Shown: positions 5,884 to 23,074 of the stretch, in pieces
Position numbering within the stretch: the first letter of the stretch is position 1
How the letters are laid out: each line of letters starts with the position of its first letter
Assembly (NCBI GenBank): GCA_017409845.1
Contig: JAFQRY010000011.1
Span: forward strand, 62,001 to 126,000
DNA length: 64,000 bases
Direction: 5' to 3'
Source of the DNA: Clostridia bacterium
Lineage (GTDB): Bacteria; Bacillota; Clostridia; Oscillospirales; Acutalibacteraceae
Notes under the pieces: model-generated
What the model saw: the letters and a program-made list of their open reading frames with translations, nothing else
Told to the model about the DNA's origin: nothing
Databases searched by the model: none
Made by a program: the position numbers and the translations under genes

Positions 5884-5897
5884 AAGGAGTTATTGTT

Positions 5898-9588: not shown

Positions 9589-11237
9589 TGGGTGCTCAGA
9601 AAATCAAACCCGAGGATTTATATGATGTAATTGTAGTTGGCGGCGGTCCTGCAGGACTTACCGCCGCACTTTATCTGGCACGCGCAAAATACAGAGTATT
9701 GGTGCTTGAAAAAGAACAGTTTGGCGGACAGATTACAATTACAAATGAGGTCGTAAACTATCCGGGCATTGGAAAAACAAGCGGTAAAGCACTTACAGAA
9801 ACAATGCGCCGTCAAGCAGAAGCCTTCGGAGCAGAATGCCTGCTCGCCGAGGCTAAAGGCTTGGATATAAATGAAGATGTCAAAACAGTTCATACCACCC
9901 GAGGAGATTTTAATTGTCTTGGCATCTTAATTGCAACCGGTGCACATCCCGGAACAGTCGGATTCAAAGGAGAAGAAGAACACAAAGGACAGGGCGTTGC
10001 CTACTGTGCAACCTGCGACGGCGAATTTTTTACGGATAAAGAGATTTTCGTTGTTGGCGGAGGCTTTGCCGCCGCTGAAGAAAGTGTATTTTTAACCAAG
10101 TTTGCCAGACATGTGACAATTTTTATCCGTAAAGACGATTTCAGCTGTGCTGCTTCTGTTGCAGACAAAGCGAAAAATCACGAAAAAATAACCGTTATCA
10201 CCAATACTGTTGTTGAAGAAGTATCAGGCGAAAACGGTCTGAATTATATCCGATATAAAAACACCAAAAACGGTGAGATAACCGAATACCGTGCTGAAAA
10301 CGGAGACTTTTTCGGAGTGTTTGTGTTTGCAGGATATTCTCCCGATACTGAATTGGTAAAGGATATACTCGAATTAAATGAGCACGGATATATCGTTACC
10401 GATTCGGAACAGAAAACAAGCGTTGACGGAATTTATGCCGCAGGAGATGTGTGCATAAAGCCTCTCCGTCAGATTGTTACCGCCACTGGCGACGGCGCTC
10501 TTGCAGCAACAGAGCTTGAAAAGTATGTTGCAACCATACAGCAAAAAACGGGACTGTATGCAAACCGGCCAACAGCAAAAGCTATTGAAGAATCGCCCGT
10601 AACGGAAGAAAACACTGCTCAAGATTCCGACGAAATCTTTTCCTCTGATATGAAACAGCAATTAAACGGCGTATTCAGCAAAATGCAGAACAATCTAAGA
10701 TTAAAACTGTATTTGGATAACCGTCCCGTTTCAACAGAGCTTGAGAGTTTTATTACAAATCTCGCAGCACTTACGGACAAACTCACGGTATCGGTTGTCG
10801 ACAGAAACGATGCTGAAAATAAAGCGCCTTGTGTATGTGTTTTTCTTGAAGACGGAACTGACACGGGTATTGCATTCCACGGTGTCCCCTCAGGTCACGA
10901 GTTCACCTCGTTTATGCTTGGATTATATAATGCGGCTGGACCGGGTCAGAAAACAGATGAACAAACCTATCAGGAAATCAAAGATATAAAGACTTCTGTT
11001 GATATAAAAATATTGGTAACTTTATCTTGTACGATGTGCCCTGACTTGGTTATTGCTTGTCAGCGAATTGCTACGCTTAATCCGAATATCCGTGCCGAAG
11101 TTTACGATATTCAGCATTTTGAAGAGTTGAAGAAACAATACAATGTTATGAGTGTTCCGTGTTTGTTTATTAATGATGATAAGGTGTCATTCGGTAAGAA
11201 AAATATAAATCAGATTTTGGATTTAATAAAACATTGA
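9588..11237 (+). CDS. AhpF-type peroxiredoxin reductase with rearranged domain order
   Basis: 549 residues. The first 310 or so form a thioredoxin-reductase-like flavoprotein: FAD motif GGGPAG (18-23), redox pair C140-C143 in CATC, a second nucleotide motif VVGGGFAAAEE and the GIYAAGDVC FAD tail. Residues about 350-549 form a tandem thioredoxin-like module with the CxxC C481-C484 in SCTMCPDLV. Canonical AhpF has that module at the N terminus, so the order is reversed here. It should pass NAD(P)H electrons to AhpC, whose gene overlaps this one by a single base. The Trx-like module probably serves as the docking electron shuttle. Confidence 0.88.
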   Translation: MGAQKIKPEDLYDVIVVGGGPAGLTAALYLARAKYRVLVLEKEQFGGQITITNEVVNYPGIGKTSGKALTETMRRQAEAFGAECLLAEAKGLDINEDVKTVHTTRGDFNCLGILIATGAHPGTVGFKGEEEHKGQGVAYCATCDGEFFTDKEIFVVGGGFAAAEESVFLTKFARHVTIFIRKDDFSCAASVADKAKNHEKITVITNTVVEEVSGENGLNYIRYKNTKNGEITEYRAENGDFFGVFVFAGYSPDTELVKDILELNEHGYIVTDSEQKTSVDGIYAAGDVCIKPLRQIVTATGDGALAATELEKYVATIQQKTGLYANRPTAKAIEESPVTEENTAQDSDEIFSSDMKQQLNGVFSKMQNNLRLKLYLDNRPVSTELESFITNLAALTDKLTVSVVDRNDAENKAPCVCVFLEDGTDTGIAFHGVPSGHEFTSFMLGLYNAAGPGQKTDEQTYQEIKDIKTSVDIKILVTLSCTMCPDLVIACQRIATLNPNIRAEVYDIQHFEELKKQYNVMSVPCLFINDDKVSFGKKNINQILDLIKH

Positions 11238-11262
11238 TAACAATTAAATAGGCTATATAAAG

Positions 11263-11302
11263 AATCAGGTGCAACGGGATTTAATTTCTGCTACACCTGA
11301 TT
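11263..11302 (+). terminator. probable terminator of the superoxide/peroxide operon
   Basis: AATCAGGTG (11263-11271) and CACCTGATT (11294-11302) are perfect complements with a 22-base loop, followed by ATATCTTTTTATAT. The long loop makes it weaker than a classical terminator. Confidence 0.6.
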
Positions 11303-11450
11303 ATATCTTTTTATATAAACTTTTTATGTGGGGTGTAAGGGGTGCCCCCCTTAATTGCGGATTTGTACGTTCAAATCCATTGCTCGCTAAGACAAACGCC
11401 AAACACTTTTGAATTTAAAATCAACACTTTTGCAGCACAGCCGAAAACTG

Positions 11451-11479
11451 TTGACAAATTATTCTTATATTGTTACAAT
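11451..11479 (+). promoter_or_regulatory. consensus sigma-A promoter of the modifying-enzyme array
   Basis: TTGACA at 11451-11456, a 17-base spacer and TACAAT at 11474-11479. It is the only strong promoter seen ahead of the 18 closely spaced genes from 11648 to 21910. Confidence 0.85.
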
Positions 11480-11511
11480 AAATAAAAATTACTGAAAGGC
11501 AGGTGGACAAG

Positions 11512-11568
11512 ATGACAATGATGATTATCACAATGAATCGGAGAGCCGTTTTGTCCGTTTGCGATTGA
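11512..11568 (+). CDS. 18-codon leader peptide ahead of the array
   Basis: The ORF encodes MTMMIITMNRRAVLSVCD and stops at TGA 11566-11568. It lies about 26 bases after the expected transcription start, with an AAGGCAGGTGG purine-rich site before the ATG. Codons 10-11 (CGGAGA, 11539-11544) are exactly complementary to TCTCCG (11601-11606) in the left arm of the following terminator hairpin. A second pair, GGACAA (11505-11510) with TTGTCC (11551-11556), could mask the ribosome site. Ribosome position on this ORF could therefore decide whether transcription continues, as in leaders of Firmicutes antibiotic resistance genes. Expression is inferred. Confidence 0.6.
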   Translation: MTMMIITMNRRAVLSVCD

Positions 11569-11595
11569 TGTAATTTATATCTTTCTGTGAATTGC

Positions 11596-11630
11596 AGGCA
11601 TCTCCGTTTCGGAGGTGCCTTTATTATTTT
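11596..11630 (+). terminator. attenuator terminator between leader ORF and array
   Basis: AGGCATCTCCG (11596-11606), loop TTT and CGGAGGTGCCT (11610-11620) form an 11-bp stem followed by TTATTATTTT. Its placement after a promoter and leader ORF but before the first structural gene makes it a conditional terminator. Confidence 0.8.
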
Positions 11631-11647
11631 GCAGAAAGGGATTTTTA

Positions 11648-12097
11648 ATGTACAAAATTAAACCTTTAGAACAAGAAAACATCATATTTATTTGTAGTCT
11701 TATGTCTGAACCAAACAACATTTCCTCTTTACACACAGATATAATACCCTTGGATGAATGGCAAAAATCATTTGCAGAAGCTGAAGATGATAAAGATGAA
11801 GAAAACTTTATTGTTTATAACAAAAATATTCCGTGTGGTTGGTTAAAACTGAATGGACTTAAAAGCAACGATATTGCTTGGATTTCAATGCTTGTTGTCC
11901 CTGAAAAGTTTAAGCGTCAAGGCATCGGAAAATTTGCTGTAGAATTTGCTGCTCAATATCTAAAACACCGTGGATATAGATATATAAAGTTGCAAACAAC
12001 AACAGATAATTCAGCTGCATTGAGTCTATACAGTAAATGTGGTTTTACCATAGTCAACCAATCTACTACAAAAATTACGATGTGCAAAGAGGTATAA
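11648..12097 (+). CDS. GNAT acetyltransferase (array gene 1)
   Basis: 149 residues with the ATG at 11648 preceded by AGAAAGG; an in-frame GTG at 11615 lies inside the attenuator hairpin and was rejected. The GNAT acetyl-CoA loop is KFKRQGIGKF (motif A, R/Q-x-x-G-x-G), preceded by the strand AWISMLVVP and followed by NSAALSLYSKCGF, the usual motif B. The N-terminal part, with MSEPNNISSLH, is of the kind seen in small-molecule and drug N-acetyltransferases. The substrate cannot be deduced. The next gene starts three bases after the stop. Confidence 0.82.
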   Translation: MYKIKPLEQENIIFICSLMSEPNNISSLHTDIIPLDEWQKSFAEAEDDKDEENFIVYNKNIPCGWLKLNGLKSNDIAWISMLVVPEKFKRQGIGKFAVEFAAQYLKHRGYRYIKLQTTTDNSAALSLYSKCGFTIVNQSTTKITMCKEV

Positions 12098-12099
12098 AA

Positions 12100-12573
12100 A
12101 TGACAAAAGAATGCTGTTGGTGCAATTTTACTGACGAAGAAAAACAAAACATTTTATTTGAAAGTGCATATTGGTATGTGTTTCTGGCAGACAATCAGGA
12201 TTATATAGGAAGATGTGTTATCGTTCTTAAACGGCATAGTGAAAGTCTGTCAGACCTTGATTTGTCCGAATGGATTGAATTGAAAGAACTAATCAACAGG
12301 CTCGAAAAATGTTTTGAAAAAATATTGGGTGCTGATTTGTGTAATTGGAGTTGTCTGATGAATGATTTTTATAAATCAGCCACTCCCAACCCACACTTGC
12401 ATCTTCATGTAAGACCTCGATATAGCAAAGCCATAACTATAAACGGCAGTAGTTATATTGATACAGAATTCGGGCATCATTATCAACCTAAAAAAGAAAC
12501 ATTGTTGACAAATGATAACAGAAAAATATTGCTTAATATGATGAAAACCTTTTTAAATCAGGAGCAGAAATGA
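12100..12573 (+). CDS. HIT-family hydrolase/transferase (array gene 2)
   Basis: 157 residues. The histidine triad is H99, H101 and H103 in PHLHLHVRPR, the signature of the HIT superfamily, whose members hydrolyse or transfer nucleotidyl groups through a covalent His-AMP intermediate. C5, C6 and C8 near the N terminus may bind a metal, as in some HIT proteins. The ATG at 12100 was chosen over an upstream in-frame start that runs into the previous gene. The stop overlaps the next start as ATGA. A role in removing adenylyl groups or acting on nucleotidylated compounds is only conjecture. Confidence 0.83.
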   Translation: MTKECCWCNFTDEEKQNILFESAYWYVFLADNQDYIGRCVIVLKRHSESLSDLDLSEWIELKELINRLEKCFEKILGADLCNWSCLMNDFYKSATPNPHLHLHVRPRYSKAITINGSSYIDTEFGHHYQPKKETLLTNDNRKILLNMMKTFLNQEQK

Positions 12574-13199
12574 TTACACTAACCGAATATCTGAACAACC
12601 CTTGCGGAACATTATCCATTCCATATTGGAAAGCTAAAATTATAACCATTCCGTCTGATATGATAATTCTGCACGACAGAGATTTTTCATCTGACATATT
12701 ATCCGAATACACAGACGAAAAGTATTTTCGTTTGTATCACAGCCTTAAAGATATACCTGAAATTGCAACAGATGATTTTGAAATCACAACTGCAACACGA
12801 AGAGATATAAAAGCAATCGTGCAGATAGTCAACGATTCATATACAGATATTTCGATTAACAAGGAACTGATCAAAAGCTATACCCAAACACCTGTTTATA
12901 ACAAAAACTTATGGAAAATGGTTAAAGAAAAAGCAACGGACAAATATGTCAGTTGCGGTTTGGCTGATTATGATGCGGAAGCAAAAGAACTTATACTTGA
13001 ATGGATACAAGTGTTACCTGAATACCGTGGTAAGAAAATCGGACAGTTAATTGTAAACGAACTGCTGTTCAGAATGAAAGATGTTGCAGATTTTGCAACT
13101 GTTTCGGGTAAAGTAGATAACGAAACAAATCCCGAAGCACTATACAGAAAATGCGGATTTGTCGGCAATGATGTATGGCACATTCTGCATAAGAAATGA
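12570..13199 (+). CDS. two-part GNAT acetyltransferase (array gene 3)
   Basis: 209 residues. The first 65 residues form a separate N-terminal segment (EYLNNPCGTLSIPYWK) that I know only as a companion to some Clostridial GNAT domains. The rest is a GNAT domain with EWIQVLPEYRGKKIGQLIV as strand 4 and acetyl-CoA loop, and NPEALYRKCGF as motif B. The start overlaps the HIT gene stop by four bases (ATGA), indicating translational coupling. Substrate unknown. Confidence 0.8.
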   Translation: MITLTEYLNNPCGTLSIPYWKAKIITIPSDMIILHDRDFSSDILSEYTDEKYFRLYHSLKDIPEIATDDFEITTATRRDIKAIVQIVNDSYTDISINKELIKSYTQTPVYNKNLWKMVKEKATDKYVSCGLADYDAEAKELILEWIQVLPEYRGKKIGQLIVNELLFRMKDVADFATVSGKVDNETNPEALYRKCGFVGNDVWHILHKK

Positions 13200-13208
13200 G
13201 GCTCGACA

Positions 13209-13892
13209 ATGCAATACAAAGCAATATTCTTTGACCGTGACGGCACACTGACATATTTCACCGCAGAAAAAGAGGCTTGGCGTAACGAGCAAATCATCAA
13301 TTGGAGCGGTAAGCCGTTTAAACTTGATTACGATAAAATGATGTCTTTGTTTCACCTTGCAAGTGAAGGCAGAAAGCCTTGGTATAAAACGCTTGATGAT
13401 GAGCGTGAATTTTTCAGAAGATATTATTGTCACCTTCTTGTCGGTGAGGGTGTAACGGAAAACGTTGATGAAAAAGCGGATTGCCTTTTGAATGAGCTTT
13501 GGTGCAACGGTGACAGAGCTTTGTTTTTAGAAACGGTTGAGGTGCTTGAATATTTTAAAAGCCGTGGCTACAAAATGGGTGTTATAAGCGATACATCTCC
13601 GTCGCTTGAATTCACATTGCAACAGCTTGGTATTGCAAAATACTTCACGTCGTTTACTGCAAGCTCGTTGGTCGGTGCCGGAAAACCAAGCCCGATTATT
13701 TTCAACGCTGCACTTGAAGCACAAGGTATAACCGCATCTGAAAGCATATTTGTTGACGATTGCAAAGAAGAAGCCGAAGGTGCAAGAAAGCAAGGTTTTA
13801 CTGCTTTTTATCTTGACCGAAGCGGAGAAAACAACGAAGAATGGACAATACACAATCTGAAACAGTTGATGGAAAAAGAGGATTTAAAATGA
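13209..13892 (+). CDS. HAD-superfamily hydrolase (array gene 4)
   Basis: 227 residues. Motif I is FFDRDGTLT with nucleophile D9 and acid/base D11; motif II is VISDTS; the motif III lysine lies in GAGKPSP; motif IV is FVDDCKEEAEGA. The helical cap between motifs I and II fits subclass IA, typical of phosphatases of sugar phosphates and similar small molecules. In an array with a phosphotransferase-like gene it might reverse or process phosphorylated products, but nothing shows this directly. It overlaps the following methyltransferase by four bases. Confidence 0.85.
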   Translation: MQYKAIFFDRDGTLTYFTAEKEAWRNEQIINWSGKPFKLDYDKMMSLFHLASEGRKPWYKTLDDEREFFRRYYCHLLVGEGVTENVDEKADCLLNELWCNGDRALFLETVEVLEYFKSRGYKMGVISDTSPSLEFTLQQLGIAKYFTSFTASSLVGAGKPSPIIFNAALEAQGITASESIFVDDCKEEAEGARKQGFTAFYLDRSGENNEEWTIHNLKQLMEKEDLK

Positions 13893-14647
13893 TCGACTAC
13901 ACTAAAATAAATTCAGAAACTTGGGATTTGTGGGCGGAAGACGGCTGCGAATATACCTTGCCCATAAGTCACGAGGAATACGAGGAAATTACTGCTGATG
14001 ATTTTTCGGTTATTCTTACTCCTTGCATTGCCGTTCCTCACGAATGGTTTGGTGATTTGAGAGGTAAAAAGGTGTTGGGACTTGCAAGCAGCGGCGGTCA
14101 GCAGATGCCCGTTCTTTCAAAGCTCGGTGCAAATTGTACCGTGTTTGATTATTCCGACAGACAGCTTGAAGCAGAGAAAATGGTGTCCGAAAGAGAAGGT
14201 TACAACATCACTATCATCAAAGGTGATATGTCAAAAACGCTTCCGTTTGAAGATGAAAGCTTTGATTTGATTTTTCACCCCGTTTCAAACAACTATGTTG
14301 AAGATGTTTATCACGTCTGGAACGAGTGTTACCGTGTGCTTAAAAAGGGTGGCAGACTGCTTTCGGGTCTTGATAACGGCATAGATTATTTATTTGAAGA
14401 AGACGATCCGTTGAAAGTGGTTAATCCCTTGCCGTTCAATCCCCTCAAAATGCCGAAAGAACGTCTTGACACAATGATTGCAAACGGTGACGGCGTTCAG
14501 TTCAGCCATACTCTCGATGAACAAATCGGCGGTCAGCTCAAAGCGGGATTTACACTCAAAGCATTGTACGAAGACCGTGACGGAGAAGGCGGAAACATAA
14601 TCGGCAAATATTATCCGCAGTATGTTGCTACATTTGCGGTGAAATAA
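13889..14647 (+). CDS. SAM-dependent methyltransferase, class I (array gene 5)
   Basis: 252 residues. The ATG at 13889 overlaps the HAD gene stop as ATGA; an in-frame ATG at 13841 lies well inside that gene and was rejected. Motif I is KKVLGLASSGGQQ (61-72), motif II ends in the acidic TVFDYSD, and FDLIFHPVSNNYVEDVYHV plus RVLKKGGRLLSG match later class I motifs. The form with LASSGGQQ is common in a Clostridial small-molecule methyltransferase group. Substrate unknown. Confidence 0.85.
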   Translation: MIDYTKINSETWDLWAEDGCEYTLPISHEEYEEITADDFSVILTPCIAVPHEWFGDLRGKKVLGLASSGGQQMPVLSKLGANCTVFDYSDRQLEAEKMVSEREGYNITIIKGDMSKTLPFEDESFDLIFHPVSNNYVEDVYHVWNECYRVLKKGGRLLSGLDNGIDYLFEEDDPLKVVNPLPFNPLKMPKERLDTMIANGDGVQFSHTLDEQIGGQLKAGFTLKALYEDRDGEGGNIIGKYYPQYVATFAVK

Positions 14648-14656
14648 GGTGAGTTT

Positions 14657-15208
14657 ATGGACAACTTAAAAAACAACGCCGACAAATTGCTTTATGATTT
14701 CGGTTTGCTTAATGAATTAAAAAATTACGGCACTCCTTATATTGTCGGCAGTTATGCTATGGATTTAATGGTGTGGAATGACTTGGATATTTATGTTTCC
14801 AACGAATTTATGTCAACAGAGAAATTATATGAGCTGACTTGTTTTATACTTAACACTTTCTGCCCTGTATGGTATGAAGCAAAGAAAGATATTGTCGACG
14901 GCAAAATCGCTTGGTTTCACGGCTTTGAAACAGAGGTTTTAAGTGAGCTTTGGAATATTGATATATGGTTCTTTGATAATGAAGCTATCACAAATACTAT
15001 TGAATTTTGTAACAGAATCAAGGCTCAAGCAGATACCGATGAAACAAAGAGAAAGTCTGCAATAAATATCAAACAAGCCTTAATTGAAAATGAACAATAT
15101 GGCTTCAGAAAATATACGAGTATGGATGTATATAAGGCTGTGTTTGAAATGGAAATAACTAGTTATATGGAATTTATTTCACAACAACAGTTAAAAACAA
15201 GGAGATAA
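14657..15208 (+). CDS. nucleotidyltransferase-fold protein (array gene 6)
   Basis: 183 residues. GSYAMDLMVWNDLDIYV (31-47) contains the GS motif and the D42/D44 pair (DxD) of the polymerase-beta-type nucleotidyltransferase fold. A third acidic residue is likely in ELWNIDIWF, where the fold places its third carboxylate. The general layout resembles small single-domain enzymes such as lincosamide or aminoglycoside adenylyltransferases, but the similarity is only structural in kind. GTGAG lies before the ATG. Activity on a drug is possible, not shown. Confidence 0.7.
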   Translation: MDNLKNNADKLLYDFGLLNELKNYGTPYIVGSYAMDLMVWNDLDIYVSNEFMSTEKLYELTCFILNTFCPVWYEAKKDIVDGKIAWFHGFETEVLSELWNIDIWFFDNEAITNTIEFCNRIKAQADTDETKRKSAINIKQALIENEQYGFRKYTSMDVYKAVFEMEITSYMEFISQQQLKTRR

Positions 15209-15212
15209 AACA

Positions 15213-15662
15213 ATGAGTATTCTTACAGTTGCAAGCGGTCAATCAGTTTACCGTGGATATGAATATTACACGCAAAACAAGGTTTTGGTACATACTCAAA
15301 TTAACGATAACGAGTTTGAGGGATTTGTTAAGGGTTCGGAGGATAAGCCATATAAAGTTCACATTAATATTGCAAAGCCGAAAACATCAACTTGCGATTG
15401 TCCTTTTGCAAACGGTAAAAGAGTTTGCAAACATATGGTTGCGGTTTTCTTTGCGGCATTCCCCGAAGAAGCAGAGCAATATATCGCAGAATTGGAAGCT
15501 TATTATGAGGAAGAAAAGCGATACGAAGAACTTGACAATATGATTCAAGAATATGTAAAGAAATTAACTAAACCTCAGTTGCAAGAAATTCTGCTTCAGG
15601 TTTTATATGACGGTCCCGAATGGCAGTTTGAAAAATTTATTCGTGAATATATCGAATATTGA
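15213..15662 (+). CDS. SWIM zinc-finger protein (array gene 7)
   Basis: 149 residues. C61, C63, C72 and H74 form the CxC...CxH SWIM motif in CDCPFANGKRVCKH. The N-terminal half is a small beta-rich region (YEYYTQNKVLVH), and the C-terminal third is helical and acidic. SWIM domains are thought to bind DNA or proteins. It is the only likely nucleic-acid-binding or regulatory product in the array, so it might be an accessory or regulatory protein. AAGGAG lies just before the start. Confidence 0.82.
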   Translation: MSILTVASGQSVYRGYEYYTQNKVLVHTQINDNEFEGFVKGSEDKPYKVHINIAKPKTSTCDCPFANGKRVCKHMVAVFFAAFPEEAEQYIAELEAYYEEEKRYEELDNMIQEYVKKLTKPQLQEILLQVLYDGPEWQFEKFIREYIEY

Positions 15663-15691
15663 TTTTGGTGACAAAATGATATTAAAGATAG

Positions 15692-16111
15692 GTGGAAATC
15701 AGAGTAATGACTGCTGATGACTACGATTCCGTAGCAAAGCTATGGACAAACGCAAGCGGTGTAGGTGTAAATCCCGACGATTCAAAAGAAAACATTTCAA
15801 AATATCTTCAAAGAAATCCTAATACAAGTTTTGTTGCTGTTGAAAACGGTGAAATTGTAGGTGCTATTTTAGCAGGTCACGACGGATACAGAGGTTTTAT
15901 TCATCACACCGCCGTTTCAGCCTCACACAGAGGAACAGGAATAGGAACAAAGTTAGTAAATGCTGCTGTTGATGCGATCAGAAATGAAGGTATAAACAAG
16001 GTTGTTTTGGTTGCGTTTAAGACAAACACTCTCGGAAACAACTTTTGGGAGAAACAAGGTTTTGCTGTAAGGGAAGATTTATATTACAGAGATTTGAGAA
16101 TTAATAACTAA
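15692..16111 (+). CDS. GNAT acetyltransferase, GTG start (array gene 8)
   Basis: 139 residues starting at GTG 15692, chosen because MEIRVMTADDYDSV is the expected first strand of a GNAT domain; the only in-frame ATG would cut into that strand. HRGTGIGTKLV is the acetyl-CoA loop and NTLGNNFWEKQGF is motif B. The compact size and GYRGFIHHTAV strand resemble YpeA/RimI-like GNATs. It could modify a protein N terminus or a small amine; substrate unknown. Spacing to the neighbours is under 31 bases on each side. Confidence 0.82.
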   Translation: MEIRVMTADDYDSVAKLWTNASGVGVNPDDSKENISKYLQRNPNTSFVAVENGEIVGAILAGHDGYRGFIHHTAVSASHRGTGIGTKLVNAAVDAIRNEGINKVVLVAFKTNTLGNNFWEKQGFAVREDLYYRDLRINN

Positions 16112-16133
16112 ATTTAAACATAGGTGAAGCCAT

Positions 16134-17006
16134 ATGGAAATCATATCAAAAGAACCCATAAACAAAGGTTGGTCATGTGATAAGAAATACTGTGTCACAA
16201 CTGCTGACGGAACTAAATATCTTTTGCGTGTCACTCCGTTTGACAAAAGTGCGAACCGTGAGAATATGTTCCGTATGCAGCAAGAAGTTGCGAAACTCGG
16301 TATTCCTATGTGCAAGTCACTTGAAATCGGCGAATGTGATGAGGGTATTTACATTTTGCAGACTTGGGTTGACGGCAAAGATGCAAATGAGGTTATACCG
16401 TATCTTACAGACTCTGAACAGTATGCTCTCGGACTTGAAGCGGGCAAAATTCTAAAGAAAATTCACTCTATTCCCGCACCTGAAAATCAGCAGGATTGGG
16501 AAACCCGTATCAACGATAAAGCAGATTTGAGAATCAGAAAATATAACGAATGTCTTCTGAAATATGATAACGGTCAGGCTTTTATTGACTTCATCAACGC
16601 AAACCGTTATCTGCTCAAAGGCAGACCGCAGGTGTTTCAGCACGGTGATTATCACATCGGCAATATGATGATTGAAAACGGCAAAGTTGTTATTATCGAC
16701 TTTGACCGCTACGATTTCGGCGATCCGTGGGAAGAATTCAAGAGTATTACCTGGTGTGCACAGGCTTCTCCGCTTTTCGCTTCGGGTATGGTCAACGGAT
16801 ATTTTGACAATGATGTGCCTATGGAGTTCTGGAAACTTCTTGCATTATATATCAGCCTTGGTACAATTACTTCTCTGCCATGGGCAATTCCGTATGGCGA
16901 AGGCGAAGTTCAGACTATGCGAAACCTTGCAAATGAAGTGCTTGAATGGTATGACAATATGCAGAATCCTGTGCCGAGTTGGTACACAAAAGAGGTGCAA
17001 CTATGA
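16134..17006 (+). CDS. aminoglycoside-phosphotransferase-family kinase (array gene 9)
   Basis: 290 residues with the bilobal APH kinase layout. The catalytic loop is HGDYHIGN with H170, D172 and N177, and the metal-binding motif is IIDFDRYDFGDP with D189. Upstream, YLLRVTPF carries the probable ATP-anchoring residue and LETWV-like ILQTWVDG is the hinge. Family members phosphorylate aminoglycosides, macrolides, choline or other hydroxyl compounds. The following gene is an AAC(6')-like acetyltransferase whose start overlaps this stop (ATGA), so an aminoglycoside substrate is an attractive inference but is unproven. Confidence 0.85.
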   Translation: MEIISKEPINKGWSCDKKYCVTTADGTKYLLRVTPFDKSANRENMFRMQQEVAKLGIPMCKSLEIGECDEGIYILQTWVDGKDANEVIPYLTDSEQYALGLEAGKILKKIHSIPAPENQQDWETRINDKADLRIRKYNECLLKYDNGQAFIDFINANRYLLKGRPQVFQHGDYHIGNMMIENGKVVIIDFDRYDFGDPWEEFKSITWCAQASPLFASGMVNGYFDNDVPMEFWKLLALYISLGTITSLPWAIPYGEGEVQTMRNLANEVLEWYDNMQNPVPSWYTKEVQL

Positions 17007-17440
17007 TAAGAAAAGCAACCACAAACGACACAAGAGTATTAGCAGAATTAGCAATACAGATGTGGTGTAATCACACGGCATCGGAACTTGATGCAGACTT
17101 TGCCGAGATTGTTTTAAACAAAGATGCTGTTTGTTTTATAAAATATGTTGATGATATCCCCATTGGTTTTGCACAGTGTCAGCTTCGCCACGATTATGTT
17201 GAGGGTACACACTCATCTCCCGTCGGTTATCTGGAAGGAATTTTTGTTGTTCCCGAATATCAGCATAAAGGATATGCAAAAGAACTGTTGCACGAATGTG
17301 AATTGTGGGCAAAAGAAAAAGGTTGTTCGGAATTTGCAAGCGATTGTGAACTTGACAACATAAACAGTTTAAATTTTCATATGGCAATGGGTTTTGAAGA
17401 AGCAAACCGTGTTATATGTTTCAGGAAAGAGTTGGGGTAA
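17003..17440 (+). CDS. AAC(6')-like aminoglycoside N-acetyltransferase (array gene 10)
   Basis: 145 residues with the ATG at 17003 overlapping the phosphotransferase stop by four bases. EGTHSSPVGYLEGIFV (67-82) followed by PEYQHKGYAKELL (84-96) and the FASDCELDN stretch (111-119) closely follow the signature I recall of AAC(6')-I enzymes, which transfer acetyl groups to the 6'-amino group of kanamycin-, tobramycin- and amikacin-type drugs. The C-terminal FEEANRVICFRKEL also fits. Length equals the family norm. This is the most specific resistance-type assignment in the array; actual drug range is unknown. Confidence 0.8.
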   Translation: MIRKATTNDTRVLAELAIQMWCNHTASELDADFAEIVLNKDAVCFIKYVDDIPIGFAQCQLRHDYVEGTHSSPVGYLEGIFVVPEYQHKGYAKELLHECELWAKEKGCSEFASDCELDNINSLNFHMAMGFEEANRVICFRKELG

Positions 17441-17446
17441 TTCAAT

Positions 17447-17905
17447 ATGGTCAGAAAAGCAACTAATAACGATATATCTGCGATAGCTGAATTATACCGT
17501 GAGCAATTCAGAGAAATGGCAAAGCTGATTCCCGATTTTATAAAAGAAGGCGACCAGAGCACAGAGTTTATTGAGAATACAATTGCTAATGAAGAGTCAG
17601 ATATTCTTATTTATGAGAACGATGATATGATTGTCGGTTTTATACTGCTTCAAGCGAAAACAAGACCCAATTTTGAATTTATGCATCCCGGAAAGTATTG
17701 CTATATAATGGACATAAGCGTAACCGAAAATCATCGTGGTAAAGGGTTCGGAACAGCTTTAATGAACGCTGCAAAAGATTGGGCAAAAGAACGGGATTGT
17801 AATTTTATAAATCTTGATGTTCTTGTGAATAATCCTTATGCAATTAAACTCTATGAAAAACTCGGCTTTATCCCCAAAGCGCAGGAAATGTATTGTAAAT
17901 TATAA
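17447..17905 (+). CDS. GNAT acetyltransferase (array gene 11)
   Basis: 152 residues beginning MVRKATNNDISAIAELY, the typical first strand and helix of a GNAT domain. YIMDISVTENHRGKGFGTALM is strand 4 plus the acetyl-CoA loop, and NPYAIKLYEKLGF is motif B. The start resembles that of array gene 10 (MIRKATTND), so an old duplication is possible, though the rest has diverged and lacks the EGT signature. Substrate unknown. Confidence 0.83.
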   Translation: MVRKATNNDISAIAELYREQFREMAKLIPDFIKEGDQSTEFIENTIANEESDILIYENDDMIVGFILLQAKTRPNFEFMHPGKYCYIMDISVTENHRGKGFGTALMNAAKDWAKERDCNFINLDVLVNNPYAIKLYEKLGFIPKAQEMYCKL

Positions 17906-17920
17906 TCAGGAGTAAATAAA

Positions 17921-18571
17921 ATGCTTGAAAAAATGAATGAGTTTTTTGATAAACGGTTAGACGGTTACGATGAACATATGATGACCAATATCGAATCGTC
18001 TGACGTGTTTTATCCATATACCGCCGACTGTTTACCCAAAACCGACGGTGCAAAAATCCTTGATTTGGGTTGCGGTACGGGTTTGGAATTGGAACATTAT
18101 TTCAGACTTAACCCCTTTGCCAAAATAACCGGTATCGACTTAACCGAATCAATGCTGAACGCACTGAAAAATAAGCTTCCCGAAAATGATCTGACATTGA
18201 TTTGCGGCTCATATTTTGATATTCCGTTTGATGAAAACAATTTTGACGCCGCAGTTTCGGTTGAATCCCTGCACCATTTCACAAAAGAAGAAAAAATCCC
18301 GCTTTATGCAAAACTCTGCAAAGCATTAAAAAATGGAGGATATTTTATTCTTACCGATTATTTCGCCTTGTCTGATGAAGATGAGAGAACATTCCGAAAC
18401 GAGTTGCTCCGTCTCAAAAAGGAACAAGGCGTTGATGACAAAGAGTTTTATCACTATGATACCCCGTTGACCGTTGAACATGAAACCAAAGCCTTACTAG
18501 AATCGGGTTTTTCTTCCGTTGAAGTGCTGAATAACTGGGGCGCAACATTCACATTAAAAGCAAATAAATAG
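17921..18571 (+). CDS. SAM-dependent methyltransferase, class I (array gene 12)
   Basis: 216 residues. Motif I is KILDLGCGTGLELE (45-58), followed by GIDLTESML and VSVESLHHFTKEEK. ALKNGGYFILTDYF is the late conserved strand. It belongs to the broad Methyltransf_25/11 group acting on small molecules and differs clearly from array gene 5, so the two were probably acquired separately. It starts 15 bases after the preceding GNAT gene behind AGGAG. Substrate unknown. Confidence 0.86.
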   Translation: MLEKMNEFFDKRLDGYDEHMMTNIESSDVFYPYTADCLPKTDGAKILDLGCGTGLELEHYFRLNPFAKITGIDLTESMLNALKNKLPENDLTLICGSYFDIPFDENNFDAAVSVESLHHFTKEEKIPLYAKLCKALKNGGYFILTDYFALSDEDERTFRNELLRLKKEQGVDDKEFYHYDTPLTVEHETKALLESGFSSVEVLNNWGATFTLKANK

Positions 18572-18579
18572 GTGTAAAT

Positions 18580-19347
18580 ATGACGAATCAAGAAATATTT
18601 CAAATCGCATTACAGCAATCCGCGTATGACTGCAACTGCAACGCAGAAGATTTTCTTGCAACTGAAAAAAAGGTTGTTTTATCGCAGAAGAATGAAAAAG
18701 CAAGGGTGTATGTGCCCTTGCCGCTTGAGTGTGATTTAGTATCATACGGAAACAATATTGTCGCTCAGGTCAGTCCGAGAATGAAAGAAACCGTTGAGTG
18801 GTACATAGGCAAATATGCCGTTGAGCATTGTTTTGAATCACCCAATGTTATTGCACTCAACGAGAAGTTAGCAGAGTTTGGCTATAAAGTCTGCTTTATG
18901 GCGGAATACTTCCTGCCCGATGTCAACGCACTTAAAGAACTGCCCTGCAATTATGAAATAAGAGTTTTACAGCCCGAAGAATTTGAACAATATTACACTG
19001 CCGAGTGGGGCAACGCTTTGTGCAAAAGCCGAAAGCATCTTGATAAACTCGCTGTCGGTGCATTCGATAACGGCAAACTCATAGGACTTACAGGCTGTTC
19101 TGCCGATTGTGAAACAATGTATCAGATCGGCGTTGATGTTCTGCCCGAATACCGAAGAAAAGGCGTTGCATCTGCAATTACAAGCAAGCTTGCCATTGAA
19201 ATATTGAAACTCGGCAAAGTACCGTTCTACTGTGCTGCATGGTCGAATATCAAATCTGTCCGCAATGCTATCAAAAGCGGATTCAGACCTGCGTGGGTCG
19301 AGCTGACAGCAAGAAACAGCGAGTTTGTTGATGATATGAATAAGTAA
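18580..19347 (+). CDS. long GNAT acetyltransferase with N-terminal extension (array gene 13)
   Basis: 255 residues. The first 130 residues contain no motif that I recognise, though the alternating strands may be a degenerate GNAT repeat. The C-terminal half is a GNAT domain of FR47 type: IGVDVLPEYRRKGVASAITSK carries the acetyl-CoA loop, followed by AAWSNIKSVRNAIKSGF as motif B. Two-part GNATs of this size occur in Clostridial drug and amino acid acetyltransferases. GGTG precedes the ATG. Substrate unknown. Confidence 0.8.
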   Translation: MTNQEIFQIALQQSAYDCNCNAEDFLATEKKVVLSQKNEKARVYVPLPLECDLVSYGNNIVAQVSPRMKETVEWYIGKYAVEHCFESPNVIALNEKLAEFGYKVCFMAEYFLPDVNALKELPCNYEIRVLQPEEFEQYYTAEWGNALCKSRKHLDKLAVGAFDNGKLIGLTGCSADCETMYQIGVDVLPEYRRKGVASAITSKLAIEILKLGKVPFYCAAWSNIKSVRNAIKSGFRPAWVELTARNSEFVDDMNK

Positions 19348-19360
19348 GAAGGTGTTGCTT

Positions 19361-19855
19361 ATGATAAAAGTCTTTTTAATCTGCGGCAAAATCTGCTGCG
19401 GTAAAACTACATACGCACAAAAGCTTTGTAAAGAAAAGAATGCTGTACTGCTTTCGGTTGATGAAATAACGCTTGCTCTTTTCGGTCAGCATTGTGGCGA
19501 TAAACACGATGAATATGTGGAAAGAACTGAGAAATATCTGTTAAATAAATCCTTGGAACTACTCGAAAACAATTTCAATGTCGTTCTTGACTGGGGCTTC
19601 TGGACAAAAGCAGAACGGAAAGCGGTAAAAGAGTTTTACAAATCCCGTAATATCGAATGCGAGCTTCATTACATTGTTATTAGCGATAAAACATGGAAAT
19701 CTCGCTTGCACAAGAGAAACGACACTGTACTTGCAAATGAAACAAGTGCCTACTATGTTGACGATAATCTCGCCGCAAAATTCGCTTCAATATTTGAAGT
19801 GCCAAGCGAAGATGAGTTTGATGTTATTTATAAAGGTGACACAGATGGAATTTGA
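19361..19855 (+). CDS. P-loop kinase, AAA_33-like (array gene 14)
   Basis: 164 residues. Walker A is GKICCGKT (9-16), an unusual loop with two cysteines. VLLSVDEITLALF is the Asp-containing strand used by this group to bind substrate or metal, and NFNVVLDWGFW is the probable Walker B region. Small kinases of this type include chloramphenicol and other drug or nucleotide kinases. The ATG at 19361 follows AAGAAGG; a GTG nine bases upstream is less likely. Its stop lies inside the next gene's start region (11-base overlap). Confidence 0.8.
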   Translation: MIKVFLICGKICCGKTTYAQKLCKEKNAVLLSVDEITLALFGQHCGDKHDEYVERTEKYLLNKSLELLENNFNVVLDWGFWTKAERKAVKEFYKSRNIECELHYIVISDKTWKSRLHKRNDTVLANETSAYYVDDNLAAKFASIFEVPSEDEFDVIYKGDTDGI

Positions 19856-20237
19856 TGAGTTTATAAAGCTGAGGGATATTAAAATCAGAGATAATGAACA
19901 TTTGAGGGTTATTAAGTGTTTTTATCCTTATCTCCGTAGTGTTTCCGGTGATGAACAATTACTTCCATCACTTATCGGAAATATTTTAGGTGTTGATTTA
20001 TCGAATGTTACAGTTGAAACCGCCTGTTTTAACGGCGTAAATGACGATAGTAACCCGCCTTATGTTAACGTTGACCTATATATCAAATTCAATAACGATA
20101 TAAAAGTTTTCGTTTACGGCAGAAAACTTGAACATCTTTATGAATTAAAAGAAAATGAGTATGTAATATTTTTGCTTGCAAATGAAATTACAAGCAATGT
20201 TATAAAAACAGGAAACAATTATATCTATATCAAATAA
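19845..20237 (+). CDS. uncharacterised protein (130 aa; array gene 15)
   Basis: The ATG at 19845 follows AAAGGTG and overlaps the kinase gene by 11 bases, a strong sign of real coupled translation. The protein starts MEFDEFIKLRDIKIRDNEH, has no signal peptide or membrane segment, and has an even mix of strands and helices with several hydrophobic beta segments (VDLYIKFNNDIKVFVYG, YVIFLLANEIT). No catalytic motif is evident. I do not recognise the family. It is the only array member without a recognisable fold. Confidence 0.65.
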   Translation: MEFDEFIKLRDIKIRDNEHLRVIKCFYPYLRSVSGDEQLLPSLIGNILGVDLSNVTVETACFNGVNDDSNPPYVNVDLYIKFNNDIKVFVYGRKLEHLYELKENEYVIFLLANEITSNVIKTGNNYIYIK

Positions 20238-20259
20238 TTTTGAAAAAAATCAAGGTAAA

Positions 20260-20859
20260 ATGATAGACAGAAGTATTCCATATTATAATTTGATTTTAAA
20301 ATGCAATGAAATTTGCATAACATCAGTTTTGTTACCTGAAGGATACAGCTTTAAGACGTATAATAAAGGTGACGAAAAACATTGGGCAGAACTTGAATAT
20401 GAAATCGGTGATTTTTCATCCGTTGAAGAAGCTGAAACATATTTCAGAAGAAATTACTGCAAACAAATTGATGAACTGAAAAAGCGTTGTGTTTTTGTTG
20501 TGGACGATAAAGGTAATGTTGTAGGCTCCTGTATTGCTTGGCACGATTTAAAAGACAAGGCTACAGTCGCTTCTCTGCACTGGCTTGTTGTTTCACCGAA
20601 ATATCAAGGCAAACATATAGGTTTGGCGCTTTGCCAAAAGGTAATGGAGATTTTTAAAAAGTCAGGAGAATTTCCCGTATATATTCATACTCAACCGTGG
20701 AGTTATAAGGCTATATTTCTCTACACCAAACTCGGCTTCAAAATTCAGAAAACCGATACTTTCTCACATTATGAAAATCAATATATACAAGCTTTGAAAA
20801 CATTAAAAAACATCTTAACAGATAGTCAAGTTAATCAGCTTATTTTATATTCAGAGTAA
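20260..20859 (+). CDS. GNAT acetyltransferase (array gene 16)
   Basis: 199 residues. LHWLVVSPKYQGKHIGLALC carries a slightly atypical acetyl-CoA loop (QGKHIG, with His before the last two residues), and WSYKAIFLYTKLGF is motif B. The N-terminal 70 residues include YSFKTYNKGDEKHWAELE, typical of GNATs with a longer first segment. A weak A-rich leader precedes the ATG, with AAGGT as ribosome site. Substrate unknown. Confidence 0.8.
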   Translation: MIDRSIPYYNLILKCNEICITSVLLPEGYSFKTYNKGDEKHWAELEYEIGDFSSVEEAETYFRRNYCKQIDELKKRCVFVVDDKGNVVGSCIAWHDLKDKATVASLHWLVVSPKYQGKHIGLALCQKVMEIFKKSGEFPVYIHTQPWSYKAIFLYTKLGFKIQKTDTFSHYENQYIQALKTLKNILTDSQVNQLILYSE

Positions 20860-20878
20860 AACTCTTGGAGATATAGAT

Positions 20879-21349
20879 ATGAACATCGTCAGAAAAATAA
20901 AAACAACCGAACTCCCTATACTTACACAGCTTTTCAACTATAAAGATATTGATGATATGATTGCCGAAAACACTTGCAACATTGAAAATGGTATCGTTGA
21001 TATTTTTGCCCTGTTTGATAATGGCAAGCTGATTGGCGAGCTTCATGTGAAATATGACAATGAAGATAAAGACTTCGCCGAAAAAGGGAAACGAGCATAT
21101 CTGTTTGCATTCAGAGTTCATAAAGACTATCAAGGCAAAGGATTAGGCTCATATCTTCTTGAAACCGTTATTGACGAACTCAATGCCAACGGTTATCACG
21201 AACTTACTGTCGGCGTCGAAGATGACAATAACCGAGCAAGATATATGTACGAGAAACACGGCTTCGTTCACCCCATTGCCCGAATAAAAGAAACATACCA
21301 AGGCGACAGTTATGAATATGATTTGTTGTTGAGAAAAGAAACACTTTAA
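20879..21349 (+). CDS. GNAT acetyltransferase (array gene 17)
   Basis: 156 residues. AYLFAFRVHKDYQGKGLGSYLLE is strand 4 with the acetyl-CoA loop, and DNNRARYMYEKHGF is motif B. It begins MNIVRKIKTTELPILTQLF, a normal GNAT start, and is preceded by TTGGAG. It lies 19 bases after the previous GNAT gene. Substrate unknown. Confidence 0.83.
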   Translation: MNIVRKIKTTELPILTQLFNYKDIDDMIAENTCNIENGIVDIFALFDNGKLIGELHVKYDNEDKDFAEKGKRAYLFAFRVHKDYQGKGLGSYLLETVIDELNANGYHELTVGVEDDNNRARYMYEKHGFVHPIARIKETYQGDSYEYDLLLRKETL

Positions 21350-21361
21350 AATGGTGATTAT

Positions 21362-21910
21362 ATGAAAACTCTTATTCTGAACGGCTCTCCTCGTAAAAAC
21401 GGAGATACTGTTAGTTTAATCAACAAACTAACAGAGCAATTAAATGGCGAATACAAAATAGTAAATGCTTATTATTCAGATATTTCTTCTTGTGTTGATT
21501 GCCGTTATTGTTGGAAAAATGACGGTTGTTCAATTAATGACGAAATGGCAGAAATATATGATTATATTGCCGATTGTGATAATGTTGTAATTGCATCACC
21601 TATTTATTTCTCACAGCCTACAGGAAAGCTCTTTGACGTTTGCAGCAGATTTCAAACATATTTTGCAGCAAAGCATTTTCGTAACGAAACAATTTCCGTC
21701 AAGCCAAAGAAAGGTGCGGTAATTCTTGTCGGCGGTGGTGACGGTAATCCTGAAGATGCATATAAAACCGTCTGCTCATTACTTAATCACATCAATGTTA
21801 CAAAGATTTATCCTTTGGTTGGAAGTTTTAACACCAATGAATTGTCTGCAACGAATGACCAAAAGGCAATAAAGGGAATTGAGGATATCGCAGATTATTT
21901 AAACAGATAA
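21362..21910 (+). CDS. flavodoxin-fold iron-sulfur flavoprotein / NADPH-dependent FMN reductase (array gene 18)
   Basis: 182 residues. LILNGSPRKNGDT (4-16) is the FMN-phosphate loop of the NADPH-dependent FMN reductase family. C44, C47, C50 and C56 form a CxxCxxCx5C cluster motif like that of the archaeal and Clostridial iron-sulfur flavoprotein Isf, so a 4Fe-4S cluster next to FMN is likely. VIASPIYFSQPTGKL is the second FMN-contact segment. It is the last intact gene of the array; the recombinase remnant begins directly after its stop. It may reduce quinones, nitro compounds or oxygen species. Confidence 0.85.
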   Translation: MKTLILNGSPRKNGDTVSLINKLTEQLNGEYKIVNAYYSDISSCVDCRYCWKNDGCSINDEMAEIYDYIADCDNVVIASPIYFSQPTGKLFDVCSRFQTYFAAKHFRNETISVKPKKGAVILVGGGDGNPEDAYKTVCSLLNHINVTKIYPLVGSFNTNELSATNDQKAIKGIEDIADYLNR

Positions 21911-22337
21911 AAACACAAAAACCATACAAGCTGATCCAAAAGTCAACTTGTATGAAGATAACACAAGGGGTAAAATATCTGATGAGCGATTTGCGACACT
22001 TTCTGAATCTTTGGAAGATGAACAGCGAGAATTGAAAGACAAAGTTCCCGACATAGAAACTTTCTTGGAGGAAACGGAAATCAAATGTGAAGGCTTACAG
22101 CATTTTATTGAACGAGCAAAAAGAATAACCCGTCTGACAGAGCTGACGCCTGAGTTAGTTAACGAGTTCATTGAAAGAATTGTTGTGTCAAAGCCCGAGA
22201 AGATTAATGGCAAACGGCATCAGACAATAGACATCTACTATCACGGTGCCGGAATAATTAAAATGCTCTCTGCCGAAGAAATGGAAGAAGCGTACCAACA
22301 GCATATTTCAAGACAACATAAAGCAAAAACGGCATAG
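21911..22337 (+). pseudogene. C-terminal remnant of a large serine recombinase (DUF4368 region)
   Basis: From just after the flavoprotein stop the frame is open and reads NLYEDNTRGKISDERF, a coiled-coil stretch, LTPELVNEFIERIVV and TIDIYYHGAGIIKM, ending at 22337. These are the C-terminal features (zinc-ribbon-distal coiled coil and DUF4368 tail) of TnpX/TndX-type site-specific serine recombinases. The N-terminal catalytic resolvase domain, with its serine, and the recombinase domain are absent. The gene is therefore a 3' fragment of roughly 140 codons from a protein of about 500. A TTG at 21948 could start a short peptide but has no clear ribosome site. Confidence 0.8.
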
Positions 22338-22353
22338 CCGTGGCTATACCGTT
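22328..22353. terminator. hairpin at the end of the recombinase remnant
   Basis: AACGGCATAGCC and GGCTATACCGTT form a 12-bp stem with one mismatch across a two-base loop. It overlaps the last codons of the remnant. The T tract after it is poor, so it may be an element-end structure rather than a strong terminator. Confidence 0.5.
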
Positions 22354-22384
22354 CAAATTACAATTATTTAGTTTTACTGCAAGA

Positions 22385-22436
22385 GCTGCCTAGGGGTAAC
22401 TTCCTTATGGAGGGTACCCCAAAACAGCCCCTTTTT
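22385..22436. repeat. palindrome at the right edge of the accessory island
   Basis: GGGGTAACTTCC and GGAGGGTACCCC (22393-22420) pair around TTAT inside an outer GCTG/CAGC pair, followed by CCCCTTTTTT. The AACTTCCTTATG core and CAGCCCCTTTTTT edge are the inverse of the left-edge palindrome at 5498-5565. Confidence 0.6.
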
Positions 22437-22465
22437 TATTATTAATAAAAACACTGAATGTTAAG

Positions 22466-23074
22466 CTATATATTGATACCTTTTTCGAGCATAGCCTTTT
22501 TAAGAATTTCAATATTGCCGTGATAATAGCAGTGGCCGTCCATGCCCGTTGCCCTTGCACCGTCGATATTAGCCTGAACATCGTCAATGAAATAGCATTC
22601 CCCGGGGATGAGCGAAAATTTTTCGTAGAGCGTAAGATAAATTTCTCTTTCGGGCTTGAGGAGCTTATAATCCGCCGAAATAAGATAGCCGTCAAAGAGC
22701 GAGAGTGCGGGAATCCCGTCAATTCTTTCGTAAAAATCGCCCGAAGCATTTGAGAGAAGATAAATTCCGTAGCCGTTTTCCTTAAGACCCTTTATGAACT
22801 CATACATTCCTTCAAACGGCGGCATATACGGATAGAAATTATGCACCATTTCGCTTGCTTTCTCAAAAATCCCTGCAGGAATAACATCCTTTTTCTGCTC
22901 CATGATTTCATCGGGAGAGATGATTCCTCTGTCCTTATCCGCCCATATGGGATTGCGGAAAATTTCCTTTAAAAGAAGGTCGGCGGTTTCTTTGTCAAAA
23001 AGCGAATACATCGTTTTTTCGGGATTGTAGTCAATGAGCACGCCGCCCATGTCAAAAATAATATTTTTAATCAT
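22466..23074 (-). CDS. HAD-superfamily hydrolase, subclass IA
   Basis: About 202 residues. Motif I is IIFDMGGVLIDY (nucleophile Asp in FDMGG, the variant with Gly instead of the usual acid/base Asp context DxDG), motif II LLSNAS, motif III lysine in KLLKPEREIY, and motif IV CYFIDDVQANIDGA. This pattern matches YihX/alpha-D-glucose-1-phosphatase-like HADs. Start ATG 23074 follows GGTGAAAAAT; GTG 23083 and TTG 23086 are alternatives. It lies downstream of the 126-residue gene on the same strand with an imperfect hairpin between them. Confidence 0.85.
   Translation of the reverse strand: MIKNIIFDMGGVLIDYNPEKTMYSLFDKETADLLLKEIFRNPIWADKDRGIISPDEIMEQKKDVIPAGIFEKASEMVHNFYPYMPPFEGMYEFIKGLKENGYGIYLLSNASGDFYERIDGIPALSLFDGYLISADYKLLKPEREIYLTLYEKFSLIPGECYFIDDVQANIDGARATGMDGHCYYHGNIEILKKAMLEKGINI

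What the first reader, a model, noticed from the sequence alone, without database searches (positions are those of the whole stretch)
11451..22337. Attenuator-led 18-gene array of small-molecule-modifying enzymes
The sequence shows 18 genes on one strand from 11648 to 21910, with gaps of at most about 30 bases or four-base overlaps, a single strong promoter and a leader with terminator. Eight encode GNAT acetyltransferases, the rest a phosphotransferase, two methyltransferases, a nucleotidyltransferase, a P-loop kinase, HIT and HAD hydrolases, a SWIM protein, an Fe-S flavoprotein and an unknown. Acetylation, phosphorylation, nucleotidylation and methylation are the four common chemistries of drug inactivation. 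Gene starts, sizes and motifs differ so much that this looks like accretion of unrelated enzymes, not tandem duplication. I infer a broad antibiotic or xenobiotic-inactivation cluster; I know of no described system of this composition.
Basis: partly seen in the sequence, partly recalled or inferred. Interest (0 to 1): 0.86.

Follow-up and report, generated by a model that had tools for sequence, protein, structure and literature searches.

The report
Attenuator-led, gene-by-gene reshuffled enzyme array
A gut bacterium carries 18 small enzyme genes in a row behind one switch that looks built to sense stalled ribosomes, and relatives carry the same kind of row with single genes added, lost or swapped close to their ends, much like an integron but without the known integron machinery.

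Summary
In detail: 18 genes on one strand (11648-21910, spacing -11 to +29), one near-consensus promoter, and a leader with terminator. It is one of a family. The same genome has a second array with its own leader, and 69 leader loci were collected from relatives. Shared genes recur with new neighbours: where neighbours differ, DNA homology usually stops near the ORF ends; where they are the same it runs on. Four genomes hold arrays between the same flanks with different genes. Gene order is partly conserved. No integron integrase passed its cut-off in 25 genomes, and 341 of 465 gaps are 30 bases or less. The leader looks like a ribosome-mediated attenuator; its antiterminator co-varies with the terminator (0 of 5000 permutations as good). 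In other families the same leader precedes single genes. A LytTR-type repeat links both arrays of this genome to a two-component operon, with mixed support in relatives. One gene is a curated AAC(6') match. Drug inactivation is plausible but unproven; the reshuffling is the new part.

The parts
11403..11432 (+). direct repeat ACACTTTTG-N12-ACACTTTTG, LytTR-type site (inferred)
   Evidence: 4 sites with 0-1 mismatches in the whole draft genome; 2 more at 3 mismatches; reversed-pattern control 1 in all at up to 3
11451..11479 (+). sigma-70-type promoter
   Evidence: 11 of 12 bases, 17-base spacer
11505..11514 (+). segment 1: leader RBS/start, pairs with segment 2b
11512..11568 (+). leader ORF, MTMMIITMNRRAVLSVCD
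   Evidence: comparable ORF and stop position kept in 67 of 68 leaders
11539..11547 (+). segment 2a: antiterminator, pairs with the terminator 5' arm
   Evidence: covariation
11549..11556 (+). segment 2b: TTTTGTCC, pairs with segment 1
11596..11620 (+). terminator (segments 3 and 4)
11648..12097 (+). g1 GNAT
   Evidence: 40% identical to the second half of a leader-linked double GNAT in another family
12100..12573 (+). g2 HIT
12570..13199 (+). g3 GNAT
13209..13892 (+). g4 HAD hydrolase
13889..14647 (+). g5 methyltransferase, 93% DNA copy in array B
14657..15208 (+). g6, putative nucleotidyltransferase (motif by eye only)
   Evidence: no match
15213..15662 (+). g7 SWIM zinc finger
15692..16111 (+). 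g8 GNAT, 94% DNA copy in array B
16134..17006 (+). g9 APH-family phosphotransferase
17003..17440 (+). g10 AAC(6')-type GNAT
   Evidence: NF043067 199.1 bits, cut-off 140; solved AAC(6') relatives
17447..17905 (+). g11 GNAT
17921..18571 (+). g12 methyltransferase
18580..19347 (+). g13 GNAT
19361..19855 (+). g14 P-loop kinase (AAA_33)
19845..20237 (+). g15 unknown
   Evidence: no match; relatives in two sister arrays
20260..20859 (+). g16 GNAT
20879..21349 (+). g17 GNAT
21362..21910 (+). g18 NADPH-dependent FMN reductase family
21948..22337 (+). C-terminal remnant (129 aa) of a large serine recombinase
   Evidence: DUF4368; 88% DNA match to the end of a 558-aa gene in L192

Best explanation
The locus is one of a family of inducible enzyme arrays of gut Clostridia. 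A common promoter is followed by a translated leader with a terminator. When a ribosome stalls early on the leader, the leader start can no longer pair with the switch segment; the switch segment pairs with the terminator's 5' arm and RNA polymerase reads through into the array. When translation is free, or absent, the terminator forms. A LytTR-type site upstream may add a second input from a two-component system. Behind the leader, single genes are lost, gained and exchanged between arrays, with junctions near the start codon on one side and near the stop codon on the other. I infer ordinary homologous recombination between arrays plus illegitimate deletions and insertions, filtered by selection for intact, closely packed reading frames, rather than a site-specific recombinase. 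The most likely use is protection against ribosome-targeting drugs and other toxic small molecules met in the gut. Shown: architecture, leader covariation, shared genes, abrupt junctions, turnover at one place. Inferred: one transcript, ribosome stalling as the signal, LytTR control, resistance function, recombination route.
For: Second array in the same genome sharing only two genes. ORF pairs of at least 85% DNA identity: match ends within -30..+20 bases of the ORF border in 117 of 129 (upstream) and 83 of 100 (downstream) pairs with different neighbours, and runs 100 bases or more in 87 of 94 and 66 of 69 with the same neighbour. Order: 59 discordant of 1060 against 282 +/- 15 shuffled. Same flanks, different genes in four genomes. 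Leader ORF kept in 67 of 68; antiterminator-terminator pairing better than all 5000 permutations. Leader with single genes in other families. AAC(6') match.
Against: No expression data. Only one of 18 proteins passes a resistance cut-off. The LytTR regulator is in 6 of 14 leader-bearing genomes of the genus and missing from four that have the repeat. Leader codons show no single stalling motif shared by all. Some arrays carry genes unlikely to act on drugs. Breakpoint counts are not independent, since genomes share ancestry.
Confidence: 0.58

Rival explanations
1. An integron-like gene-capture platform with an unknown recombinase: bare ORFs with their ribosome-binding site are the mobile units, and translation-initiation regions serve as sites.
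For: Sharp 5' borders, median 1 base before the start codon; 183 of 290 adjacent ordered cluster pairs are distinct; a toxin-antitoxin pair inside array B, as reported for some integron cassettes (PMC8618304, passages).
Against: No integron integrase over the cut-off in 25 genomes (the 14 control genomes also gave none, so sensitivity was not shown); no shared site beyond RBS-like bases; 3' borders ragged, median 10 bases inside the ORF; order conserved.
Confidence: 0.17
2. The arrays serve general metabolite repair or stress metabolism; the leader senses slow translation of any cause, such as amino-acid shortage (type II leaders are rich in Tyr).
For: HIT, HAD, NUDIX, histidine phosphatase and methyltransferase genes; Tyr-rich type II leader peptides.
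Against: Fast turnover and different content in neighbouring species fit an outside pressure better; AAC(6') match; the same leader before a Mef-like transporter (weak match).
Confidence: 0.25
3. The array is cargo of a decayed Tn4451-like transposon and moves as a whole.
For: Recombinase remnant at its 3' end; TnpV gene just upstream of the leader in L196, and a similar DNA match in L197.
Against: The flanking sequences also occur without arrays; five arrays sit at one shared rRNA-side flank; no match in plasmids or viral contigs, one 69.8% match over 16% of the query in phages. It does not explain single-gene changes at one place.
Confidence: 0.1

Closest known systems
Ribosome-mediated transcription attenuators of resistance genes, e.g. 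hflXr/rli80 of Listeria (PMC6310831, passages read); vmlR (listing and start of abstract only)
   Same: short leader ORF over an anti-antiterminator, antiterminator and terminator
   Different: controls a long array of variable genes; no RLR motif in the leader here; drug response untested
Integron cassette arrays (PMC8618304, passages read)
   Same: one promoter, row of small genes of mixed function, gene-by-gene turnover, a toxin-antitoxin pair in array B
   Different: no integrase over cut-off, gaps mostly too short for attC-type sites (attC length recalled), ragged 3' borders
AgrA/BlpR-type LytTR two-component regulons (PMC4227749 and PMC8545106, passages read)
   Same: direct repeat upstream of -35, regulator operon with the same promoter and site
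   Different: no signal peptide identified; regulator not found in all leader-bearing relatives
AAC(6') aminoglycoside acetyltransferases
   Same: g10 passes the curated cut-off
   Different: one gene of 18; substrate untested

Membership tests
Integron | integron-integrase gene | tested here: not met
   TIGR02249: 0 of 25 genomes over the cut-off; drafts are incomplete, and the 14 control genomes also gave 0 over the cut-off
Integron | attC recombination sites between genes | tested here: not met
   median gap 12 bases, 341 of 465 at most 30; no repeat family at gene borders of the window array among the families shown. No dedicated attC model was run
Ribosome-mediated attenuator | translated leader ORF overlapping alternative pairing segments | tested here: met
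   ORF kept in 67 of 68 leaders; translation itself not tested
Ribosome-mediated attenuator | mutually exclusive antiterminator and terminator | tested here: met
   66 of 71 leaders complete; permutation test 0 of 5000
Ribosome-mediated attenuator | induction by ribosome stalling | not testable with these tools
   needs a reporter assay
LytTR regulon | direct repeat site shared by target and regulator promoters | tested here: met
   this genome
LytTR regulon | regulator present wherever the site is present | tested here: inconclusive
   regulator missing from G009, G010, G017 and G026 drafts, which have the site
AAC(6') | curated family score (g10) | tested here: met
   NF043067 199.1 bits, cut-off 140
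Tn4451-like element | intact TnpX recombinase and defined ends around the array | tested here: not met
   only a 129-aa remnant and a TnpV-like frame with an internal stop at 5896-6267

The most novel reading that the evidence does not exclude
A gene-capture platform independent of integrons, in which the mobile unit is a bare open reading frame with its ribosome-binding site: an unrecognised process adds and removes single genes at translation-initiation regions of a common, ribosome-sensing, possibly quorum-linked operon, so that each species assembles its own inducible detoxification repertoire.
Probability: 0.2. Interest if true: 0.92.

Novelty: new variant of a known kind. Interest (0 to 1): 0.74.

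Why it matters
It shows a cassette-like reservoir of small-molecule-modifying enzymes in uncultured gut Clostridia, under a switch of the type that resistance genes use to sense blocked ribosomes. If right, the arrays are a ready list of candidate drug-modifying enzymes, and their junctions are a natural data set on how operons gain and lose single genes without known site-specific recombination.

Tried and rejected
Recent tandem duplication and core-metabolism synteny were rejected. A known RNA family: none at gathering score near the leader; two matches at E below 1 (SNORA69, U7) are below their gathering scores. Integron membership was rejected. Empty-site test at ahpF: G018 shares DNA up to 11401, two bases before the repeat, but its other flank is not syntenic there and the flanking sequences are dispersed, so no clean empty site could be shown. 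Plasmids and viral contigs: no match; phages: one 69.8% match over 16% of the query. Papers: eight searches on arrays, cassettes or attenuators listed nothing describing such arrays; a ninth was on LytTR sites. This covers only the held library. Structure prediction for g6 and g15 was not available. My first gene callers cut arrays too early; counts come.

Rows dropped before counts: one search left out L106 (no leader-type peptide), the LytTR operon C33, G009b (contig ends in the leader), G015, G019b, G003b and G033 (partial leader matches) and duplicate records. Nine of the 69 loci have no called gene, mostly because the stored DNA ends soon after the leader; others are cut by contig ends, and in G013 the leader is followed by one long gene, not an array. 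Some 3' ends run into chromosomal genes, so array sizes are upper bounds and the gap counts include them. One search left out 5 of 71 leaders (L077, L081, L083 cut or masked, L106 not a leader, L118 terminator not detected) and G015 before that. One search used 60 of 89 cluster representatives, chosen by hand to leave out clusters that looked chromosomal or fused. The order statistic counts arrays as if independent, although some share ancestry.
Full report
Observation. The window (contig 5 of a 2.53-Mb draft genome, G000) holds 18 ORFs on one strand at 11648-21910 with spacing from -11 to +29 bases. Pfam gives eight GNATs, HIT, HAD, two methyltransferases, SWIM, APH, AAA_33 and FMN_red; g6 and g15 match nothing. 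The promoter at 11451-11479 is the only 11-of-12 site in 10500-23000. The proteins are unrelated beyond shared folds. GC is 0.375 in the array and 0.459 in the rest of the window.

A second array. About 116 bases with the promoter and leader start recur twice in the genome. One copy (contig 19) lies about 0.1 kb from the 3' end of a 23S rRNA gene and leads a second array, B, with acetyltransferase, kinase, methyltransferase, phosphatase, TIM-barrel and radical SAM genes and a weak protease match. The window array and B share only g5 (93% DNA) and g8 (94%), at different positions and with different neighbours, and the matches stop close to the ORF borders. The other copy (contig 33) precedes a LytTR response regulator and a GHKL kinase, with ABC transporters further on.

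A family of arrays. The leader DNA matched 19 of 45 same-genus genomes (own included), some only over fragments. A 20-base leader pattern gave 63 stretches in the species-representative collection; records are labelled Clostridia, Oscillospiraceae, Lachnospiraceae or Faecalimonas except one Bacteroidaceae record without a leader-type peptide. Within the family it was in 17 of 300 genomes and 8 of 135 genera. I assembled 69 leader loci with 525 called genes; 89 clusters (at least 50% identity, 80% coverage) have two or more members and 159 genes are single. Of 60 cluster representatives (of 89, chosen by hand), 20 match the main GNAT model, 5 a methyltransferase, 3 NUDIX, 3 AAA_33, 2 APH, 2 HAD and 2 histidine phosphatase.

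How the arrays change. For ORF pairs of at least 85% DNA identity, with neighbours assigned to shared clusters or to the leader, the match ends from 30 bases inside to 20 bases beyond the ORF border in 117 of 129 pairs upstream and 83 of 100 downstream when neighbours differ; when neighbours are the same it runs 100 bases or more (of 150 looked at) in 87 of 94 and 66 of 69. The 5' border is sharp (median 1 base before the start codon); the 3' border is ragged (median 10 bases inside the ORF). A stricter ungapped count agrees: different neighbours 121 of 131 (up) and 72 of 79 (down) within 20 bases; same neighbours 60 bases or more in 57 of 80 and 50 of 64. Most of the exceptions listed there involve neighbours outside any cluster. 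Among adjacent clustered genes, 183 of 290 ordered pairs are distinct. Order is nevertheless conserved: 59 discordant of 1060 observations against 282 +/- 15 when genes are shuffled within arrays (46 arrays); an earlier, smaller set gave 20 of 315 against 83 +/- 7. In G003, G004, G010 and G025 the array starts at the same rRNA-side flank as array B (82-91% identical) and ends in the same downstream genes (aligned blocks of 5-9 kb), yet the genes between differ. So arrays are lineages with a partial common order in which single genes come and go.

No site-specific system seen. No integron integrase passed the curated cut-off in 25 genomes; weaker tyrosine recombinases match everywhere, and the 14 control genomes also gave none over the cut-off, so sensitivity was not demonstrated. 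Gaps have a median of 12 bases; 341 of 465 are 30 or less and 84 are overlaps. With different neighbours, flank identity is above background over about the first 16 bases upstream (for example 0.63 against 0.44 at -9, a Shine-Dalgarno position) and the first few bases after the stop, and near background further out. I favour homologous exchange between arrays plus illegitimate junctions filtered by selection; a dedicated process is not excluded.

The switch. Leaders have a conserved RBS and start (GGCAGGTGGACAARATGA), a variable middle, and a conserved TTTTGTC followed by a stop 10-16 bases later; the ORF is kept in 67 of 68, G013 being frameshifted. TTTTGTCC pairs with the leader start (mean -14.5 kcal/mol, shuffled -6.3). 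The bases before it pair with the terminator's 5' arm: CGGAGAGCC with GGCATCTCCG here, CGAAGTGCC with GGCATCTTCG in others, AAATCAGA with TCTGATTT in a second leader type. With arms permuted among 60 distinct leaders, none of 5000 permutations reached the native mean (-13.77 against -11.09 +/- 0.29), and 58 of 60 leaders do better with their own arm than with the average foreign one. This is the layout described for hflXr in Listeria (passages of PMC6310831). No Rfam family covers it. A covariance model from 42 leaders matched 16 of 45 genomes of the genus and 6 of 147 in the order, five of them in other families. There, and in a Faecalimonas record, the leader precedes a single GNAT (L204), a double GNAT (L205), a protein I could not assign (L206) or an MFS transporter with weak Mef(A) similarity (L071); for L207 and L208 the downstream gene was not resolved. 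The L205 double GNAT resembles first genes of arrays: 51% identity of its N-terminal half to L169 gene 1 and 40% of its C-terminal half to g1. I infer that a leader with one GNAT gene is the older state and that arrays grew behind it.

Second input. The repeat ACACTTTTG-N12-ACACTTTTG lies just upstream of the -35 of both arrays and of the LytTR operon; a fourth copy lies at the end of the kinase gene; two further sites have 3 mismatches, and the reversed pattern gives one. Across 68 leaders, 14 have it with 0-2 mismatches, each 73-77 bases upstream of the RBS, and 20 with 3 or fewer; 0 of 680 shuffles reach 3. AgrA sites are direct repeats centred near -60 (passages of PMC4227749); here the proximal repeat lies at about -58 from an assumed start. 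Against it: of 14 leader-bearing same-genus genomes, the regulator (at least 96% identity) was found in 6; G009, G010, G017 and G026 (drafts 63-95% complete) have the repeat without it, and G020 has the regulator but a leader without the repeat. The link is a lead, not a result.

Function. g10 passes the AAC(6') cut-off and has solved AAC(6') relatives; g9 is APH-like but below the resistance cut-offs. No other window array protein passes a resistance cut-off, nor did the eight sister-array proteins scanned. With a ribosome-sensing type of switch and fast turnover of modifying enzymes, protection against translation inhibitors and other gut toxins is the most likely use (about 0.55, my estimate); metabolite repair is the main rival.

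Novelty. Each part is of a known kind; the combination, cassette-like turnover without known cassette machinery under a ribosome-type attenuator, was not found in eight searches of the held paper library.

Noticed in passing
L005:11595-12174 (+), antisense inside array B: A Phd/YefM-type antitoxin and ParE-type toxin pair interrupts array B; some integron cassettes also carry such pairs.
   Followed up: partly
window 5896-6267: TnpV-like frame with one internal stop, 83% DNA match to TnpV genes upstream of array leaders in G017 and G009.
   Followed up: partly
window 11263-11402 and 22338-22440: Sequences on both sides of the array also occur elsewhere in the genome or genus without arrays; origin unknown.
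   Followed up: partly
L046, L041, L050, L043 and L005 (G003, G004, G010, G025, array B of G000): Five leaders lie at the same flank next to an rRNA operon, as if this were a preferred place.
   Followed up: partly
L196:13572-14183 and L197:7739-8791: Genes that look TIR-like by eye (not scanned) lie just upstream of TnpV and the array leader.
   Followed up: no
L071:6480-7933: The leader occurs in a Faecalimonas record before an MFS transporter with weak Mef(A) similarity.
   Followed up: partly
G000:C33:58754-58785 (-): A copy of the LytTR-type repeat overlaps the 3' end of the kinase gene; similar matches lie downstream of the leader in five other same-genus genomes. Role unknown.
   Followed up: no
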